Of a stretch of DNA of 64,000 nucleotides, positions 16,642 through 61,109 are shown piece by piece. The DNA is from Hyphomonadaceae bacterium (lineage in GTDB: Bacteria; Pseudomonadota; Alphaproteobacteria; Caulobacterales; Hyphomonadaceae): positions 1-64,000 of the forward strand of contig JANQQC010000062.1 in NCBI GenBank assembly GCA_028285145.1, written 5' to 3'. Both the position numbers and the translations under genes were made by a program. Position 1 is the first letter of the stretch. The number at the start of each line of letters is the position of its first letter. The notes under the pieces are model-generated. The model was not told the origin of the DNA. It ran no database searches and saw nothing but the letters and a program-made list of their open reading frames with translations.

Positions 16642-16728
16642 TGGTGCGGACGGCCGGGATTGAACCGGCAAGGCCTTACGGCCGGCAGATTTTAAGTCTG
16701 CTGCGTTTACCAATTTCGCCACGCCCGC
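16642..16728 (-). tRNA. tRNA-Leu (anticodon TAA)
   Basis: 87 nt including an encoded CCA (16642-16644). The acceptor stem GCGGGCG pairs with CGTCCGC (one G-U). The anticodon stem GCAGA/TCTGC holds the loop with TAA, and a long variable arm GGCCGTAAGGCC marks a leucine tRNA. The T arm has GGTTCAATCCC. The first 41 nt, through the anticodon loop, lie inside the 42-bp prophage repeat, so this gene is a hybrid: its 3' half is original chromosome and its 5' half plus upstream region come from the prophage. Confidence 0.97.
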
Positions 16729-16729
16729 A
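16688..16729. other. attL core (42-bp repeat)
   Basis: Matches 61068-61109 base for base. It spans the anticodon loop to the first base of tRNA-Leu plus one base beyond. The bases on either side differ (16687 A versus G at 61067; 16730 C versus A at 61110), which fixes the ends. Confidence 0.95.
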
Positions 16730-45808: not shown

Positions 45809-46378
45809 TTATGCTGCTTTGTAAGCTTGGTCAACTGGTACGCGAATCTCTCGCTCAGCACCGAGAAACGTCAGCAACACCTTGGCGCTGTGCTCGTCAA
45901 TCTCAATCACCTTGGCCGGATAATCGGCAAAGCCCTGCGTGTTGATCCGAACCATGTCGTTGACTTCGTATTCGTACTTGTAGCGCATCTTCCGAACGAA
46001 CGGAGAGTCGACGAAATTCCGCTTGTCCTCGCGGATCAGGAACTCCTCAACCTGGTTTGTGTCCAAAACGGCCGGCGAGCCTTCAAAGCACACCACGCCA
46101 TTGATGAACGAGAAGTCGGTGAACAGCGCATACCAGTTCACCGGGCCTGTAAACGCCACCAGGACATAGCCCCACATGGTCGGGTAATCCTTTGCCCGGC
46201 CTTTGCGACGGCAATTGCGGTGCATGCGGACGCTGCGGCGCTCATACGGCACCACAGCCCTCACGCCGCCATCTCTGAGGATCTTGGAGCACCGTAGCTC
46301 CTTCTGGCTTGGAACGCGCAGAGCAAACCACGTATCCGCGGGCTTCGGCTCGATGGCTATGGCTTGTTGGGTTGTCAT
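45809..46378 (-). CDS. NusG-like transcription (anti)termination factor
   Basis: 189 aa from the ATG preceded by GGAGG (10 nt); the frame upstream is antisense noise. Residues ~16-118 form a NusG N-terminal domain: DTWFALRVPSQKELRCSKILRDGGVRAVVPYERR and MWGYVLVAF. Residues ~136-185 form a KOW domain: YEVNDMVRINTQGFADYPAKVIEIDEHSAKVLLTFLGAEREIRVPVDQ. NusG paralogues bind RNA polymerase and change pausing or termination. Located at the end of the leftward regulatory genes and followed by an intrinsic terminator, so it likely controls read-through into the late genes. Confidence 0.85.
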   Translation of the reverse strand: MTTQQAIAIEPKPADTWFALRVPSQKELRCSKILRDGGVRAVVPYERRSVRMHRNCRRKGRAKDYPTMWGYVLVAFTGPVNWYALFTDFSFINGVVCFEGSPAVLDTNQVEEFLIREDKRNFVDSPFVRKMRYKYEYEVNDMVRINTQGFADYPAKVIEIDEHSAKVLLTFLGAEREIRVPVDQAYKAA

Positions 46379-46536
46379 TGCGGGCGGACCTCCACGAGAT
46401 AGGCAACGTAATGGACCAGACCGAGGCCCATGGCACCGACCAGTGCCCACAACGGCATCAAGACCAGCAAGGCCGGCCAGACTTCTTTCCAGAATGCCTT
46501 GCGCCACGCTTTGGCTATGGCTTGCTGGGTTCTCAT
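46375..46536 (-). CDS. Small single-pass membrane protein
   Basis: 53 aa. The start lies in an ATGA overlap with the gene before it and its stop overlaps the NusG-like start. A hydrophobic helix (WPALLVLMPLWALVGAMGLGLVHYVAYL) fills residues 20-47. The first 24 bases resemble the first 24 bases of the NusG-like gene, a sign of local duplication. Function unknown. Confidence 0.5.
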   Translation of the reverse strand: MRTQQAIAKAWRKAFWKEVWPALLVLMPLWALVGAMGLGLVHYVAYLVEVRPQ

Positions 46537-46859
46537 TGGGTGTGCCCCTCAAGATAAAGCTCTTGGACGCGTTTGCGGCAGTGGTCCTGGGCTCTTCGCT
46601 CCTTCCAGAGCGTTGCGTTCGGACCGCATAGCCGGATGCACTCTGCGGCGTTGTGGGTCGTGTCATTCATGCATTTGTCCGCAAGCGTTTCCGCCTGCTG
46701 GAGCGCTGCCGCCCTTTCTCGCCTGTCTTCGTTGGTGCCCGAAACCGCGCCAGCAACAATCGCGATGAAAACCAAAGCAGCCACGGAGAAAATGAGTATG
46801 GGCGCAACGACATCAACGACATTGAAGATTTTGCGTCGCCATTCAGCTTGTGTGGTCAT
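46533..46859 (-). CDS. Single-pass membrane protein with Cys-rich domain
   Basis: 108 aa. A membrane helix at about residues 17-40 is followed by a charged outer domain with four cysteines (CMNDTTHNAAECIRLCGPNATLWKERRAQDHC) that could form two disulfides. Linked to the next gene by a 4-bp overlap. Unknown; the small membrane proteins here could act on the host envelope early in infection. Confidence 0.58.
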   Translation of the reverse strand: MTTQAEWRRKIFNVVDVVAPILIFSVAALVFIAIVAGAVSGTNEDRRERAAALQQAETLADKCMNDTTHNAAECIRLCGPNATLWKERRAQDHCRKRVQELYLEGHTQ

Positions 46860-47524: not shown

Positions 47525-49018
47525 TCAGTCATCTGCGACCTCCGCCAACATGCGTTCGACTTCGTTTCGGGCGATGTGCTCCATCAGGCCGGATGACGGG
47601 ATGTAGCGGAGATAGAATGAGCCATTCCGGCCCATCTCGCGGCGCTTGGTCTTCCAGACGATGATCTCGGCGATGTTCGTAAGCCCCGCGACCGGATGAA
47701 GCGTGATACCGTTGTAGGGCTTGTTGGCCCAGTGCGCGGCCCCCGAGATGTCGTATCCCCTTGGCGGTCTGAGCTTGCCGATCTCCGGCGGTTTCTTGGG
47801 GTGCGCAACGATCATGATGTGGACGTTGAACGCCCGCGCCATCTGGTTGAACATGTTGAGACCGCGCTCGATATGGCGGAAGTCGGTCTCTCCATTCGGG
47901 GCTGTGATCTCGGTCCAAGGATCCACAAGAATAAACTCTGACCGATAGCGAACGATCATGGTCTGGATGCGCTCATACAACCATTCCAGGGTGACGGTTT
48001 CGCCGGTCTCATCGTTCGACACGAAAGCGAAGCGGTCCTCGTAGAATTCGCGGAATCTGACGTCGTCATCACCACGGAAGGATGAGCGCGGATAGCCCGC
48101 CCAGATGCCCGCCACATCGTCTTCGTAATAGCGGAAAATGTCGTCTTCGAACGCGGCTACGCCGATGTTCACAGAGTGACGCTTAGCCAAGGCCGTGATG
48201 ACATTCTTGATCAATGATGACTTGCCGGTATTGGCGTATCCGGTCCACACGCTGACCTGCTTGCGACAAAGCCCGATATGCTCATCAAAGTCGGGACTGA
48301 TCCCCGTGCGGTAGACGTTCAGCGGCCCAAGCCGGGGCATGTCCCTCGGAGAATACACCCCGGACACCGGCACTGGCTTGGCGTCGTCAACCACTCTGGC
48401 AACCGCCTCTTCCCCGTGCTGCAACAGGACATCGTTCAGATCCTTGCAGCCCTTCGGATACTCCACGAAACAGCACTTGGCCTTGCCGATCACCTGGCAC
48501 AAGTCCTCGAACAGGGCCGCGCCCGGCTTGTCATTGTCCGTAGCGAGAACGACACTCTCAGCCTCAGCAATCAGATCAGCCGCATCATCGAGCGCCGGGT
48601 AAGCCTTCTGGCCCGTCTCTGCCGGCGCACCCTCCGGAATCGAGACAACGCCCGTGATGCCCGCGCTCAGCGCTGCCAGTGCATCCCATTCGCCCTCGGT
48701 GATGACGATCCGTTTGCAGCCCCGTGCCATGTCCCGAAGCCAGAGCGTTTTGTTCCCGCCTTTGCTCTGAGACCAGCGGCGCGTCTCCAGATTGCGGGCC
48801 TTGATCCCGGTGGTTTCGCCATCTCGGACGTAGGGGAAAACGATGTGGTCGCCATCAGGTGCGGGCGTTAAACCGTGCTTGTCCCTGAAGGCGCTGTAAA
48901 TCCCGGTGCGCTCCGCCGCTTCGATGTCGATTCCACGTTCGCTCAGAACCGCTGCCAGCCTGTTTCCGATGGCCGGGGCGATGTCCAAACTTGAGTCCGC
49001 AGTGGTGGCAAAAGGCAA
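47525..49018 (-). CDS. TOPRIM primase-helicase (T7 gp4-like)
   Basis: 497 aa from a TTG that directly follows an in-frame stop. A TOPRIM domain carries the acidic residues in ITEGEWDALA (E108) and LATDNDKPG (D161, D163). A RecA-type DnaB-like helicase domain has Walker A at 260-268 (GYANTGKSS) and Walker B in FILVDPW. The N-terminal zinc-binding domain that T7 gp4-type proteins need for primer-site recognition is missing from this frame but is encoded just upstream in an overlapping frame (48855-49163), so the gene looks split or frameshifted. Confidence 0.88.
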   Translation of the reverse strand: MPFATTADSSLDIAPAIGNRLAAVLSERGIDIEAAERTGIYSAFRDKHGLTPAPDGDHIVFPYVRDGETTGIKARNLETRRWSQSKGGNKTLWLRDMARGCKRIVITEGEWDALAALSAGITGVVSIPEGAPAETGQKAYPALDDAADLIAEAESVVLATDNDKPGAALFEDLCQVIGKAKCCFVEYPKGCKDLNDVLLQHGEEAVARVVDDAKPVPVSGVYSPRDMPRLGPLNVYRTGISPDFDEHIGLCRKQVSVWTGYANTGKSSLIKNVITALAKRHSVNIGVAAFEDDIFRYYEDDVAGIWAGYPRSSFRGDDDVRFREFYEDRFAFVSNDETGETVTLEWLYERIQTMIVRYRSEFILVDPWTEITAPNGETDFRHIERGLNMFNQMARAFNVHIMIVAHPKKPPEIGKLRPPRGYDISGAAHWANKPYNGITLHPVAGLTNIAEIIVWKTKRREMGRNGSFYLRYIPSSGLMEHIARNEVERMLAEVADD

Positions 49019-49163
49019 GGATCAGCCCTCCATCAATGGTGATACTGAGGCAACGGGAATTCTTCTTCTTCCGTTGGGGGCTGCACGACGGGCATGTCGT
49101 GTGGTGAGTGCCGTTCGGGCGACCCTTCGCCCAGTCGACTATCGTTTGTTCGTGGTGGTTCAT
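48855..49163 (-). CDS. Zinc-binding primase domain in a separate frame
   Basis: 102 aa from the ATG preceded by GGGGGAG. Cysteines at 24, 27, 52 and 55 (CPSC and CHHC, with SRCLSITIDGGLILAF between) form a zinc ribbon like that of T7 gp4 primase. It overlaps the end of the DUF1376-type gene by 131 bp and the primase-helicase by 164 bp, each in a different frame. After the last Cys the sequence loses protein character, while the helicase frame becomes protein-like, so a +1 shift near 49000 would fuse them. Confidence 0.7.
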   Translation of the reverse strand: MNHHEQTIVDWAKGRPNGTHHTTCPSCSPQRKKKNSRCLSITIDGGLILAFCHHCGLKFGHRPGHRKQAGSGSERTWNRHRSGGAHRDLQRLQGQARFNART

Positions 49164-50007
49164 CGTCTCCCCCGTCATGCGCATGGAACATCCCAAACTC
49201 TGCGCGCTGCTGTTCTTCGCGGTTGTCGATCTTGTGGCGGCGGATCGCCCCGCCAATGTAGCCGACCGGGTCTTGCGTCCCGCTGTCGTAGAGGCCTTGA
49301 AGCACACGCAGCGCCTGCTTGGGTCCGGTTTCTTTGATGAGCTTGCCGACCAGTGACCGCGCCTTGCGCTCGTCTTCGCCGTTGTAGCGTTTGATGTAGC
49401 TTGGCCCGATGGCCCAGCATCGCTTTCGCGGATCGAGATGGACGACGGTCTCGGACACGATGGTCCCATCGGCTTCGACACCGACCACCCCATCACGTTC
49501 CTCAAGCGAGCTTTGCTCCGACGTAGTCGGAATAGTAGAAGCGTCAGCTTCTACCTCTAGCTTCTCGCTTCTAGTCTCTCTTAGGGGCCTTGTTTCTTCT
49601 GAGTTTTCTGGGACAGTTTGGGAAATCTTTCGCGAATCTTTCGCCAAACTTTGCTCAAACATTTCCAAAAGTCTGTCCAAACGTCTGCAAACCGGCTTCG
49701 GAATTGACCGGCGTTCAGCGGCAAATTGAGACATCTCCAGAAGAGCGCGTTCGTTGATCAGGCCACCATCTGAAAGCTCTATGAGCTTGCGCTTGGCAAT
49801 GAGGCTTTCGCGGACACGGAGCCATTTCCGGGCATTCGATCCACACCATCGCGCTATGGTCTTGTCATCGGCGTAGATCGCATCGCCTGCGTCGTACATG
49901 CGAAGAACGAGATGGAGGTAAAAGGCTGTCTCGTCGCAGTTGAGGCCCACCAGACCGCCGATAAAGGCGTCGGGATAGCATTTGAACCAGGGTCCGATCG
50001 CACTCAT
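49033..50007 (-). CDS. Replication protein with DUF1376-type N-terminus
   Basis: 324 aa. The first ~95 residues (WFKCYPDAFIGGLVGLNCDETAFYLHLVLRMYDAGDAIYADDKTIARWCG) match the DUF1376/YdaU winged-helix found in phage replication initiators. A disordered middle and a second helical domain (DERKARSLVGKLIKETGPKQALRVLQGLYDSG) follow, then a low-complexity tail that overlaps the zinc-ribbon frame. Likely marks the replication origin or loads the helicase. Confidence 0.75.
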   Translation of the reverse strand: MSAIGPWFKCYPDAFIGGLVGLNCDETAFYLHLVLRMYDAGDAIYADDKTIARWCGSNARKWLRVRESLIAKRKLIELSDGGLINERALLEMSQFAAERRSIPKPVCRRLDRLLEMFEQSLAKDSRKISQTVPENSEETRPLRETRSEKLEVEADASTIPTTSEQSSLEERDGVVGVEADGTIVSETVVHLDPRKRCWAIGPSYIKRYNGEDERKARSLVGKLIKETGPKQALRVLQGLYDSGTQDPVGYIGGAIRRHKIDNREEQQRAEFGMFHAHDGGDDEPPRTNDSRLGEGSPERHSPHDMPVVQPPTEEEEFPLPQYHH

Positions 50008-50186: not shown

Positions 50187-50470
50187 GCCGAAGACTCCTT
50201 CATTTGGAGGATGGAGGACACGCACTCGGTGACAGCGTCGACTTCAGCTTGTTTTGGGATCACCAGATCGCGGGCGTAGCAGGCCCTGCCCCCTCCGATA
50301 CCAACGACATGAAGCGCTGGTCGGGTCTTCCTTGGGGCGGACATGTCGACCTCGCCCTTTGCAATTTTTTCTTCTGCCAATCGGGCCTGAGCCAGAAGCA
50401 TGTAAGCCTGCATCTGGCGGCCGGCTTCACTGGCCTGCCTTGCCTGGTATCGAAGCAATGACGGGCTCAT
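50183..50470 (-). CDS. Phage protein, unknown function
   Basis: 95 aa; helical start and a small hydrophobic core (ALHVVGIGGGRACYARDLVIP). 4-bp overlaps with both neighbours place it firmly in the leftward replication operon. Confidence 0.57.
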   Translation of the reverse strand: MSPSLLRYQARQASEAGRQMQAYMLLAQARLAEEKIAKGEVDMSAPRKTRPALHVVGIGGGRACYARDLVIPKQAEVDAVTECVSSILQMKESSA

Positions 50471-50919
50471 GCTGCGGCCTCCAACAGACCGCTGTCAGCC
50501 ATCTCTTCAGCTCGGAGACGGGCGATTTCCTCGCGCGTGCCCGTTGCAAGGCGGTAGCCCTGCCCCCAAATCGTTTCGATACCCAGACCATGCGGCTTGA
50601 GTTTCCGCCTGAGCTTGCAAATGTAGACGTCAACGATCTTCAGGCCGGTCTCCGGGTGCTCGCCCTTGCTGGAAGCAAGATGAAGCATGTCCTTTGTACA
50701 GATTTCGCGGCGATATAGCGCGGCGAGAACACGCCGCTCGCTCGCGGTGAGCCGGAAGCTCAACGGGATCATTCCCTCCGGTGCCAGGGCGTCCTCAAGC
50801 TGCCGGATGCGCTCGTTCGCCTCCTCCAGCTCGTCACACATGCGCGCAAGTAGGGCAGCCTTCTCTCGTAGGGCTGTCAGCTCGTCCTGAACGGCGCTTT
50901 GCGATACAAGTGATGTCAT
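50467..50919 (-). CDS. CtrA-like winged-helix protein lacking a receiver domain
   Basis: 150 aa. Residues 10-45 are a coiled coil. Residues ~52-125 form an OmpR/PhoB winged helix whose recognition helix, KIVDVYICKLRRKL (94-107), and wing, IETIWGQGYRL (114-124), closely match those of CtrA, the master cell-cycle regulator of alphaproteobacteria. The CtrA receiver domain with its phosphorylated Asp is absent. The coiled coil could replace it as dimeriser, giving a factor independent of the CckA-ChpT relay. Inferred role: control of phage genes or competition at host CtrA boxes. Confidence 0.8.
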   Translation of the reverse strand: MTSLVSQSAVQDELTALREKAALLARMCDELEEANERIRQLEDALAPEGMIPLSFRLTASERRVLAALYRREICTKDMLHLASSKGEHPETGLKIVDVYICKLRRKLKPHGLGIETIWGQGYRLATGTREEIARLRAEEMADSGLLEAAA

Positions 50920-50945: not shown

Positions 50946-51611
50946 TTAGGCCGCTGGGCGGGTGAGTTCGTAGTCGGATGGGTACTCAAGCTTCTTCCGG
51001 CATGGCGGAATCCAGCGAAGCTGCGTGTGCTGGTTTGGAGGGCCGGCGTTCAGCCAGACCACCCAGCTATAGCTTGTGGCTGTTGAGCCGGTGGGCTTGG
51101 GATCACCCTTGGTCAGCGGCACTCGTTCTGAGAAAACACACCACCAAGTTGGCGGTCGCCTCTCGAAGAACTTGTAGCGTTCAATGGACTCCACCCACTG
51201 AGTGCGAACGAACAGCGCCACGCCCTGCGTCGCCACATCGAGCGCCCGTTCGGCAAACTGCATGGCCAGCTTGAAGGGCGGATTGGTGATGACCCAATCA
51301 ACACCTTGCTTGTTGATGTGAGGCGGCCCCTGATGCGGCCAGAGAAAGTCGCAAACACGTTCTTGGTCACCGCCGTAATCATGCACGTCAGAAGCATGAA
51401 CGGATCTGAAATACTGATTGAGTGGCCGGGACATGAAGCCATTGCCACAGGCCGGTTCCCAAACGCTGCAATTGCTTAAAGTCGCCGGGTTCAACATCTC
51501 TCCACAGAGTGCGCGCGTCGCCCATGGCGGCGTACCGAAGTAGTCGAGGGAGTCGTTCGGCTCTGTGCGATCCGCCATGACAGCGGTGTGTCCTGATGCG
51601 CGCTCAGTCAT
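50946..51611 (-). CDS. DNA N6-adenine methyltransferase-like protein
   Basis: 221 aa from the ATG preceded by AGGAGG. SAM-binding motif I is EPACGNGFM, and the catalytic motif IV is NPPF (VDWVITNPPFKLAMQFAERAL), which marks amino-methyltransferases acting on adenine or a related N. The opening DYFGTPPWATRAL is common in phage Dam-like or orphan enzymes. Target sequence unknown. The 5' flank has a tiny gene ending in the ATG (TGATG-type junction). Confidence 0.8.
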   Translation of the reverse strand: MTERASGHTAVMADRTEPNDSLDYFGTPPWATRALCGEMLNPATLSNCSVWEPACGNGFMSRPLNQYFRSVHASDVHDYGGDQERVCDFLWPHQGPPHINKQGVDWVITNPPFKLAMQFAERALDVATQGVALFVRTQWVESIERYKFFERRPPTWWCVFSERVPLTKGDPKPTGSTATSYSWVVWLNAGPPNQHTQLRWIPPCRKKLEYPSDYELTRPAA

Positions 51612-51703
51612 CCCCACCTCCTGAACGCCCGCCGCCCTGCCACTGCGAGGCAGAAGAGAGCGAAGAGCATGCGTGTGAGAGAGTCGGGGCGGTAGGTGGT
51701 CAC
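51608..51703 (-). CDS. Possible micro-protein
   Basis: 31 aa from a GTG overlapping the previous stop (GTGA); it ends in an ATGA overlap with the methyltransferase. A short hydrophobic stretch (MLFALFCLAVAG) could be a membrane anchor. Supported only by the tight coupling at both ends. Confidence 0.3.
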   Translation of the reverse strand: MTTYRPDSLTRMLFALFCLAVAGRRAFRRWG

Positions 51704-52784: not shown

Positions 52785-53026
52785 GCGGCCGTTTCTTTTT
52801 CAGAACGCTGCGATTTTGCGCGACACTCCAACGTGTGCAGGTCTCTCCAGCTTATCTTGAGGCCACGCGCCGGCGCGTTCTCCAAAATCGCTGGCCATGA
52901 GCTTTCGGGAATGCGATTCCGGTGACGCCAAACCTGCGCCTGTCCGTAAGTCGCCTCAGCATCCTCGGCAAAATCGTCGTAGGACTTCCACCGGCGCTGA
53001 AATAGAGTAACGGCATTGGCTGACAT
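52781..53026 (-). CDS. Cro-like repressor, leaderless
   Basis: 81 aa. The promoter on this strand has TTGACA (53055-53060) and TATGAT (53033-53038), which puts +1 at about 53026, exactly the second ATG; the message is therefore probably leaderless and that ATG is chosen over 53032. The sequence YDDFAEDAEATYGQAQVWRHRNRIPESSWPAILENAPARG is the compact HTH type (Cro/YdaS-like) found opposite phage repressors. It diverges from the XRE repressor gene across three operators. Confidence 0.72.
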   Translation of the reverse strand: MSANAVTLFQRRWKSYDDFAEDAEATYGQAQVWRHRNRIPESSWPAILENAPARGLKISWRDLHTLECRAKSQRSEKETAA

Positions 53027-53032
53027 GCCCAT

Positions 53033-53060
53033 ATCATACGTTTCGTATGAGTACTGTCAA
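53033..53060 (-). promoter_or_regulatory. Leftward early promoter
   Basis: -35 TTGACA (perfect), 16-bp spacer, -10 TATGAT. Two palindromic operators (53035-53049 and 53059-53073) cover the -10/spacer and the -35. Reads into the Cro-like gene. Confidence 0.8.
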
Positions 53061-53088
53061 TACGCGTCGTATGAATACATGTTGTATT
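53035..53088. promoter_or_regulatory. Three-operator cluster (left operator region)
   Basis: Three 15-bp palindromes: CATACGTTTCGTATG at 53035-53049, AATACGCGTCGTATG at 53059-53073 and AATACATGTTGTATT at 53074-53088. Half-site consensus is (A/C)ATACG around a 3-bp centre. They share the pattern with two sites near 54106-54145 and are the likely binding sites of the XRE repressor and Cro-like protein. Confidence 0.82.
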
Positions 53089-53096
53089 CGGGGGTC

Positions 53097-53468
53097 ATGA
53101 GTGAGTTCAACGAAAAAGTCGGCGAACGACTAACCTCTGCGCGGCAGGCCGCTGGCCTTTCGCGTGAGCAGGTATCAGAGCGCTTGGGCAAGGGATTCTC
53201 GCTTTCGACCATTCAGGCTCACGAAAATGGGCGAAACGCGCTGACTCCGGAAAAAGCTGATCGGTACGTCCGGCTCTACAAGATTTCGCACGACTGGCTG
53301 GTAACTGGCGTTGGAGAGATGCACTCGCAGGCGGTTGACCCGCAAACCGCAGAGATTCTCGATGTTAGCCGAAAGATTCACAACAATCGCTTACGGAAAA
53401 TCTGGATCAATACGGGTCGCGAAATGGCGGATGATGGCACCGAAAGCGAAGCTGATGGCGCTGCCTAG
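53097..53468 (+). CDS. XRE-family phage repressor
   Basis: 123 aa from the ATG directly after GGGGG; the 27 codons before it cover the operators and are not coding. Residues ~8-65 are an XRE helix-turn-helix (GERLTSARQAAGLSREQVSERLGKGFSLSTIQAHENGRNALTPEKADRYVRLYKISHDWLVTG). The C-terminal tail is short, with no LexA-like Ser-Lys peptidase, so induction does not use RecA-driven self-cleavage of this protein. It most likely keeps lysogeny. Confidence 0.85.
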   Translation: MSEFNEKVGERLTSARQAAGLSREQVSERLGKGFSLSTIQAHENGRNALTPEKADRYVRLYKISHDWLVTGVGEMHSQAVDPQTAEILDVSRKIHNNRLRKIWINTGREMADDGTESEADGAA

Positions 53469-59796: not shown

Positions 59797-60128
59797 CCGG
59801 GGCGCTCCTCACATATGCTGACGTCACCGAGCTCTTGGGCGTGGACGAAAAGACCGTTCGCGGTATCGTGGAGAAGGGTCAGCTTCCGCGCATTGTCATT
59901 TCAGCAAGGTGCATCCGCTTTGATCCGCAGGATGTTCAAGCTTTCATTGAGGGGGCGAAAGAGTGTCCGTCTATCGAAAAGGCCGCTTCTGGCACTACGA
60001 CTTCCAATACCAGGGCCGCCGCTTCTACGGTTCGACGGGGCAGGAAACAAAGCGCGCCGCTGAAACCGTGGAGCGCGCAAAACGACTTGAAGCCGCGACC
60101 GGCTCCCATGACGACGCGAGCAAAATGA
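59793..60128 (+). CDS. Excisionase-like HTH protein
   Basis: 111 aa from a GTG in a GTGA overlap. Residues 4-53 (LLTYADVTELLGVDEKTVRGIVEKGQLPRIVISARCIRFDPQDVQAFIEG) form a MerR/AlpA-type winged HTH as in phage excisionases. The rest is a basic disordered tail that overlaps the integrase start by 166 bp. It would bend attL/attR DNA to favour excision. Confidence 0.75.
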   Translation: MTGALLTYADVTELLGVDEKTVRGIVEKGQLPRIVISARCIRFDPQDVQAFIEGAKECPSIEKAASGTTTSNTRAAASTVRRGRKQSAPLKPWSAQNDLKPRPAPMTTRAK

Positions 60129-61054
60129 CCGTTGAAGCCGCCGCCAACCGATACTGGATTGAGATCGGGTCGGACTTGCGCGGAGCTCGGAACGTCGAAC
60201 GCCAACTGCGCGTCATGATGACCTGCGTTGGACCTCAGAAGCTTTTGAAGGAAATCAGCACGCCGGACGTGGTGGACGCCATCTCGCGCCGGCGCGGCAT
60301 GGATCTGGGGCGTGGAGCTCCATCAAAGACGACCGTTAACCGGGACATTATTGATTCCACGCTCCGGCCGATTATGAACCGAGCTCGGAAAGTGTGGGGC
60401 GCGCGCGGACTGTCAGACATCGATTGGGCGGCGGTGCGCTTCACTGAGCCTGAACCCGAGCATCGGGAGTACACCCCTACTCAAATTGAAGCGTGGAAAT
60501 CTGAGCTCGATCCGATTCCGCGTTTCGCATTGCACCTGCTGCTTCGCTATGGGCTACGGTTGTCGGAGCTTAATTTTGATCCGCGCGACGTGGACGGCGA
60601 AGGTGGCCGCCTGACAATCCGGGGCAAGTCTCGAAAAAGCGGTGCCGTGCTAATCCTGCCGCTCTTGGAGGAGGATGCGCGCATCCTGGCCGGGCTCGCT
60701 GGGCGCGCAATCGCGATGGGCTTGCCGACCGTCTGGTTCTATGGTGATCCACCGCAAAGCTATAAGGGGGACGCTCTGGGGCGTGTTCTGAGGCGCACTG
60801 GAAAGTCCGCCGGGCTCGACATGGGACGGCTTGTCCATGGAGCTCGACACCATGCTGGAACACAAATTCTAAGGAGGACAGGCAACCTGAAACTTGCGCA
60901 GCGTCTTCTGGGCCATGCGAGCATCCAATCCACGGTGCGATATGCCCATGCGACTGAGGCCGATCTGAGGGACGCGCTTGACGACCTGTCCCGAAATGGT
61001 CCCGAAGCCTCCGATGGGGACCTTGATAACCCGTTGAAGCGAAAGGAGAATTGA
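59963..61054 (+). CDS. int: Tyrosine site-specific integrase
   Basis: 363 aa from a GTG. An N-terminal arm-binding domain (VYRKGRFWHYDFQYQGRRFYGSTGQETKRAAE), a core-binding domain (~60-145), and a catalytic domain with R in YGLRLSEL, H-x-x-R in HGARHHAGT, and the last H and Y in LLGHASIQSTVRYAH. The stop lies 14 bp from attR. Placed after the excisionase in overlapping frames, so the two are made together. Confidence 0.96.
   Translation: MSVYRKGRFWHYDFQYQGRRFYGSTGQETKRAAETVERAKRLEAATGSHDDASKMTVEAAANRYWIEIGSDLRGARNVERQLRVMMTCVGPQKLLKEISTPDVVDAISRRRGMDLGRGAPSKTTVNRDIIDSTLRPIMNRARKVWGARGLSDIDWAAVRFTEPEPEHREYTPTQIEAWKSELDPIPRFALHLLLRYGLRLSELNFDPRDVDGEGGRLTIRGKSRKSGAVLILPLLEEDARILAGLAGRAIAMGLPTVWFYGDPPQSYKGDALGRVLRRTGKSAGLDMGRLVHGARHHAGTQILRRTGNLKLAQRLLGHASIQSTVRYAHATEADLRDALDDLSRNGPEASDGDLDNPLKRKEN
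60989..61010. repeat. Putative integrase arm sites at the right end
   Basis: Two TCCCGAA heptamers at 60989-60995 and 61000-61006, within the end of int. The stretch 60990-61010 is 20/21 identical to 16841-16861 on the other side of attP. Confidence 0.5.
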
Positions 61055-61067
61055 GATGCTGTCAACG

Positions 61068-61109
61068 GATTTTAAGTCTGCTGCGTTTACCAATTTCGCC
61101 ACGCCCGCA
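61068..61109. other. attR core with stranded 5' half of tRNA-Leu
   Basis: 42 bp identical to 16688-16729. It holds tRNA-Leu positions 1-41, without the 3' half, so any transcript across it cannot form a tRNA. Confidence 0.95.

What the first reader, a model, noticed from the sequence alone, without database searches (positions are those of the whole stretch)
50467..50919. Receiver-less CtrA mimic
The winged helix of this 150-aa protein is far closer to CtrA than to generic OmpR/PhoB proteins in its recognition helix and wing, yet the receiver domain is replaced by a coiled coil. It would read CtrA boxes without phosphorylation. This could hijack the host cell-cycle regulon, block host replication starts, or time phage genes.
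Basis: partly seen in the sequence, partly recalled or inferred. Interest (0 to 1): 0.72.

Follow-up and report, generated by a model that had tools for sequence, protein, structure and literature searches.

The report
Phage-borne receiver-less CtrA-like DNA-binding protein
A prophage in an alphaproteobacterium carries a small protein that keeps the DNA-reading half of the host's cell-cycle regulator CtrA but has swapped its phosphorylation-sensing half for a long helix; relatives are widespread in alphaproteobacterial phages, so these phages may act on their hosts' cell-cycle genes, though no binding has been tested.

Summary
The 150-aa ORF is an OmpR/PhoB-type winged helix of the CtrA kind (recognition helix 11/14 identical to CtrA; 3-8/14 to other OmpR-family paralogues), preceded by a confidently predicted 42-residue helix instead of a receiver. 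It sits in the early operon of a 44.4-kb prophage, next to replication genes. It is not unique: at least 80 divergent relatives occur in alphaproteobacterial phages and prophages; a profile of 40 of them picks out CtrA, and essentially only CtrA, in nearly every one of 200 genomes of the host's order. Two further features were found. Half of the family (37/60 of the helix type) end in Ala-Ala, as CtrA does, against 11% of neighbouring genes. Some phages carry tandem copies in which one copy has lost the CtrA-type recognition helix. That it reads CtrA boxes is plausible but untested; the prophage itself has no TTAA-N7-TTAA site, even with one mismatch. The host's own ctrA is missing only because the assembly breaks at that spot. 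Best reading: a phosphorylation-independent mini-CtrA. Phage 'ctrA' genes are annotated in a few records; I found no paper on this receiver-less family.

The parts
50467..50919 (-). receiver-less CtrA-like winged-helix protein, 150 aa
50788..50913 (-). predicted long N-terminal helix (residues 3-44), in place of a receiver
   Evidence: AlphaFold2 model; conserved '..EN..LRERV..LE' helix in relatives
50542..50766 (-). winged-helix core (residues 52-126); the N-terminal beta platform of a full OmpR-type domain is absent
   Evidence: profile match starts at position 22 of 99
50599..50640 (-). CtrA-type recognition helix KIVDVYICKLRRKL (residues 94-107)
   Evidence: alignment
50470..50475 (-). C-terminal Ala-Ala, as in CtrA
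50946..51617 (-). DNA methyltransferase (phrog_799), gene just upstream; also found near relatives
   Evidence: neighbour clustering, phrog_799 in L080
50183..50470 (-). 95-aa protein of unknown function; its ATG overlaps the stop codon of the CtrA-like gene
   Evidence: no family match
49033..50007 (-). primosomal/DUF1376 replication protein in the same early operon
   Evidence: phrog_9327
47525..49018 (-). primase/helicase
   Evidence: phrog_239
53016..53468 (+). CI/Xre-type repressor, opposite strand
59963..61054 (+). tyrosine-type integrase
   Evidence: reading of the translation; adjacent to attR
16688..16729 (.). attL: 42-bp repeat within tRNA-Leu(taa)
61068..61109 (.). attR: the same 42 bp after the integrase

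Best explanation
It is a phage early protein built from a CtrA-type DNA-binding domain on a dimerising helix: a mini-CtrA that needs no phosphorylation. Shown: CtrA-type winged helix, no receiver, long helix (predicted), prophage early operon, widespread family in alphaproteobacterial phages, Ala-Ala ends. Inferred: the helix pairs two winged helices, so the protein binds CtrA-type (TTAA-based) sites constitutively once the repressor is lifted; its main targets are host promoters or the host origin rather than the prophage, so that it competes with or stands in for CtrA during phage replication; and the Ala-Ala end lets the ClpXP protease clear it, as it clears CtrA.
For: Recognition helix and wing of CtrA type. 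NCBIfam best hit CtrA. Tree: OmpR-family paralogues split from CtrA plus phage proteins, 100/99, and 88 when the recognition-helix motif columns are removed. A profile of 40 phage proteins finds essentially one gene per genome, CtrA, in 198 of 200 genomes of the order at 1e-12. Search without a motif anchor: the CtrA domain hits 29 phage records named after alphaproteobacterial hosts, the host's PhoB domain none. Where named, the bacterial hosts of the 80 loci are Alphaproteobacteria, the group that has CtrA, apart from one MAG labelled Paceibacterota that carries a full-length CtrA-type protein. Ala-Ala end in 37/60 of the helix type against 55/488 neighbour genes. Model pLDDT 91 and PDB matches to response-regulator DNA-binding domains, some bound to DNA.
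Against: No binding data. No TTAA-N7-TTAA in the window even with one mismatch (0 found, 3.8 expected by chance); no excess of that spacing around the gene in relatives (3 in 824 kb). The host assembly itself has only 7 perfect sites (control pattern 12), so the host's real box is not defined here. Two residues in the contact regions differ from CtrA (F to Y in the helix, R to Q in the wing), and the domain lacks the beta platform. The tree has 77 columns, and an AU test does not reject placing this sequence with the paralogues (p 0.40). The alignment behind the profile was gathered partly with the motif KIVD[VI][FYR][VI]C.
Confidence: 0.5

Rival explanations
1. A phage regulator descended from CtrA that has drifted to its own operators in the phage genome and only controls phage early genes; the CtrA-like helix is inherited.
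For: It lies in the early operon with the repressor and replication genes; the tandem B copies show that the helix can be re-specified inside phages (B clade SH-aLRT 99; helices such as NTLESHISRLRRKI).
Against: The A copies keep KIVDV[FY][VI]CK across proteins only 28-47% identical to this one overall (though the search was partly anchored on this motif); searches for direct repeats found no convincing operator.
Confidence: 0.25
2. A dominant-negative: it occupies CtrA sites without activating RNA polymerase, or pairs with host CtrA or its partner SciP, shutting down the CtrA regulon (motility, division).
For: Receiver lost, DNA-reading surface kept; the loop before the recognition helix differs in length from that of CtrA.
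Against: Relatives keep the acidic DE[PA]E.K stretch of CtrA before the helix, which might favour contact with polymerase; no data on activation.
Confidence: 0.18
3. An ordinary OmpR/PhoB-type winged helix whose likeness to CtrA is convergent.
For: AU test with few columns does not exclude grouping this one sequence with paralogues (p 0.40).
Against: Profile search, NCBIfam and branch support all point to CtrA; removing the helix motif still leaves the split at 88.
Confidence: 0.07

Closest known systems
CtrA (Caulobacter crescentus response regulator, OmpR family)
   Same: Winged-helix type, recognition helix, wing motif ET[IV]WG.GY, C-terminal Ala-Ala
   Different: No receiver, so no phosphorylation site; no beta platform; long N-terminal helix; phage early gene; 45% identical over the domain
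Roseobacter phage RDJL Phi 1/2 and RDJL6 'ctrA' genes
   Same: Phage-encoded CtrA-type winged helix without receiver
   Different: Keep a beta-platform-like start instead of a long helix; do not end in Ala-Ala; fall among CtrA proteins in the tree, perhaps a separate capture
Rhodobacter RcPacific-type, Paracoccus R3 and RDJL3 phage regulators
   Same: CtrA-type winged helix
   Different: A different N-terminal domain of about 100 residues
Phage-borne cell-cycle regulators GcrA (phiCbK-like phages, PMC3556154) and CcrM (Sinorhizobium phages, cited in PMC9437464)
   Same: Phage carries a version of an alphaproteobacterial cell-cycle regulator
   Different: Different proteins; no passage found in either paper mentions a phage-encoded CtrA
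Host-CtrA control of phage genes ('lytic deferment', PMC9437464; Jorvik, PMC10589892)
   Same: Links CtrA to the phage life cycle
   Different: There the host protein acts on phage DNA; here the phage brings its own CtrA-type domain and lacks canonical boxes

Membership tests
OmpR/PhoB-type winged helix (PF00486) | Significant domain match over the curated cut-off | tested here: met
   45.2 bits against 26.2
CtrA DNA-binding domain lineage | Groups with CtrA rather than other OmpR-family paralogues | tested here: met
   Branch 100/99, 99; but the AU test for this sequence alone is not decisive (p 0.40)
CtrA DNA-binding domain lineage | CtrA-type recognition helix and wing | tested here: met
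   11/14 and 8/11 identical
CtrA response regulator (full family) | N-terminal receiver with phospho-acceptor Asp | tested here: not met
   No receiver match; only the C-terminal domain matches
CtrA response regulator (full family) | Binding to TTAA-N7-TTAA | not testable with these tools
   No binding data; no such site in the prophage
CtrA response regulator (full family) | C-terminal Ala-Ala recognised by ClpXP | tested here: inconclusive
   Ala-Ala present; proteolysis not testable. The role of Ala-Ala in CtrA is from general knowledge, not read here
Receiver-less phage CtrA-like family (defined here) | Long N-terminal helix plus CtrA-type winged helix, encoded in a phage early region | tested here: met

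The most novel reading that the evidence does not exclude
A widespread family of phage-made mini-CtrAs that write directly to the host cell-cycle regulon without the phosphorelay, are cleared through a CtrA-like Ala-Ala end, and in some phages come as pairs with one copy re-aimed at a different sequence.
Probability: 0.35. Interest if true: 0.78.

Novelty: new variant of a known kind. Interest (0 to 1): 0.6.

Why it matters
CtrA links cell division, replication start and motility in Alphaproteobacteria and is normally governed by a phosphorelay. Phages that carry its DNA-reading half alone would bypass that control. This would add CtrA to GcrA and CcrM as cell-cycle regulators taken up by phages, and would offer a natural constitutive CtrA domain, plus re-specified sister copies, for studying how this domain chooses its sites.

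Tried and rejected
Host lacking CtrA: first suggested by the searches, rejected because contig C26 begins beside sciP, exactly where a relative continues to flhF, parA and ctrA, and nearly all genomes of the order have CtrA. CtrA boxes in the prophage or around relatives' genes: none or no excess. Direct-repeat operators: only low-complexity or weak signals. AU test of a single origin of all phage copies: not rejected, not shown (p 0.35). Ala-Ala end as a by-product of ATGA gene overlap: rejected, since enrichment holds with and without overlap and with varied codons.

Full report
What is there. The ORF at 50467-50919 on the minus strand encodes 150 residues. Pfam finds only the winged helix Trans_reg_C (45 bits, residues 56-124). 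In NCBIfam the best model is a CtrA equivalog, matched over its C-terminal DNA-binding part alone (E 1.6e-9; the next family 1.9e-4). AlphaFold2 on an alignment of 40 sequences gives pLDDT 91: one helix over residues 3-44, then the winged helix with a two-strand wing. The best Foldseek matches are response-regulator DNA-binding domains such as AdeR on DNA, SaeR, ArlR and PhoB. The match to the domain profile starts at position 22 of 99, so the beta platform that opens a full OmpR-type domain is missing as well as the receiver.

Is it CtrA-like? Over the winged-helix core it shares 32 of 71 residues with C. crescentus CtrA, and 25-36% with 21 other OmpR-family proteins from the host and two relatives. 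In the recognition helix it shares 11 of 14 with CtrA and 3-8 with the others. In trees of the core the paralogues fall on one side of a branch with CtrA and all phage proteins on the other: SH-aLRT 99 (137 rows), 100/99 (81 rows, careful search), and 88 when the recognition-helix motif is left out; with both motif blocks left out, resolution is lost. With 77 columns an AU test cannot reject moving this one sequence to the paralogues (p 0.40). Because relatives were collected partly by a motif, two checks without that anchor matter. The C. crescentus CtrA domain searched against 50,697 phage records hits Rhodobacter (21), Roseobacter (6) and Paracoccus (2) phages, while the host's PhoB domain hits no phage named after an alphaproteobacterial host. 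And a profile of the phage family finds essentially one gene per genome, CtrA, in 198 of 200 genomes of the host's order at 1e-12, although genomes looked at here have about ten OmpR-family proteins each.

Setting. The gene lies in a prophage of 44.4 kb bounded by a 42-bp repeat, in tRNA-Leu(taa) at 16688-16729 and after the integrase at 61068-61109. The early operon on the minus strand holds a DNA methyltransferase (phrog_799), the CtrA-like gene, two small genes, a DUF1376 primosomal protein and a primase/helicase; a CI/Xre-type repressor is on the other strand. In relatives the gene sits in the same kind of region: 50 loci have a ParB-like (DUF6551) gene close by, others a methyltransferase, a CI-like repressor or a replication initiator.

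Family. At least 80 divergent receiver-less relatives were found in IMG/VR contigs, named phages and GTDB genomes; a second member occurs in a related closed genome, G012. N-termini differ: a long helix in most; a beta-platform start in the RDJL phages; a CxxC start in a few; a separate domain of about 100 residues in Rhodobacter, R3 and RDJL3 phages. Several phages carry tandem copies. All but one of the B copies form one clade (99) nested among the A copies; they share the leading helix and have lost the CtrA-type recognition helix for forms such as NTLESHISRLRRKI.

Ala-Ala ends. CtrA of C. crescentus and most close relatives ends in Ala-Ala, known from general knowledge to be needed for ClpXP turnover (not read here). 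Of 80 non-redundant phage A copies 40 end in Ala-Ala (37 of 60 of the long-helix type, including this one), against 55 of 488 recurrent neighbour genes in the same loci (Fisher 3e-14). The excess holds for genes with and without an ATGA overlap, and the alanines use varied codons. The tails are 2-48 residues long and otherwise variable; the state changes at least 24 times on the tree. This was noticed after looking at the sequences and related rows are not independent, so the p-value is descriptive.

Boxes. The window has no TTAA-N7-TTAA, even with one mismatch (3.8 expected), and half-sites are at chance. Around relatives' genes that spacing is not in excess. The whole host assembly has seven perfect sites, so absence from the prophage is weak evidence, but nothing suggests control of phage promoters through canonical boxes.

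Host CtrA. No ctrA is found in the assembly, yet chpT, sciP and flhA are present, and sciP lies 580 bases from the start of contig C26, where a relative continues to flhF, parA and ctrA. The gap is most simply one of assembly.

Literature. Mascolo et al. 2022 (PMC9437464) show that host CtrA binds promoters of several phages and mention phage GcrA and CcrM; no passage found there describes a phage CtrA. The phiCbK paper describes phage GcrA (PMC3556154). Jorvik needs host CtrA (PMC10589892). The RDJL Phi 1 genome paper does not mention its annotated ctrA (PMC3070671). Ten searches of the held library found no description of this family; subscription journals are mostly not held.

Verdict.

Noticed in passing
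L001-L004, L072, L075, L153, L155, L157-L159: Tandem CtrA-like genes in one phage; the B copy has a changed recognition helix and wing while sharing the leading helix.
   Followed up: partly
G000 contig C26:1-834: The host assembly breaks beside sciP, so ctrA is missing from an otherwise 99.9% complete genome.
   Followed up: yes
L217, L224, L225, L226, L065: CtrA-type winged helices with a CxxC (zinc-ribbon-like) start in viral contigs and Rhizobium phage RHph_X2_30.
   Followed up: no
plasmid hits H133-H140: Methylobacterium plasmids of 38-67 kb carry genes annotated as response regulator CtrA.
   Followed up: no
window 50946-51617: The neighbouring methyltransferase matches only positions 196-395 of a 458-position family (phrog_799); possibly a shortened form.
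   Followed up: no
window 45809-46666: Phage antiterminator-like protein (phrog_6386) at the far end of the early region.
   Followed up: no
L001 3745-4593 and about 50 related loci: A ParB-like DUF6551 gene is the commonest close neighbour of the CtrA-like gene, but was not seen in this window.
   Followed up: partly
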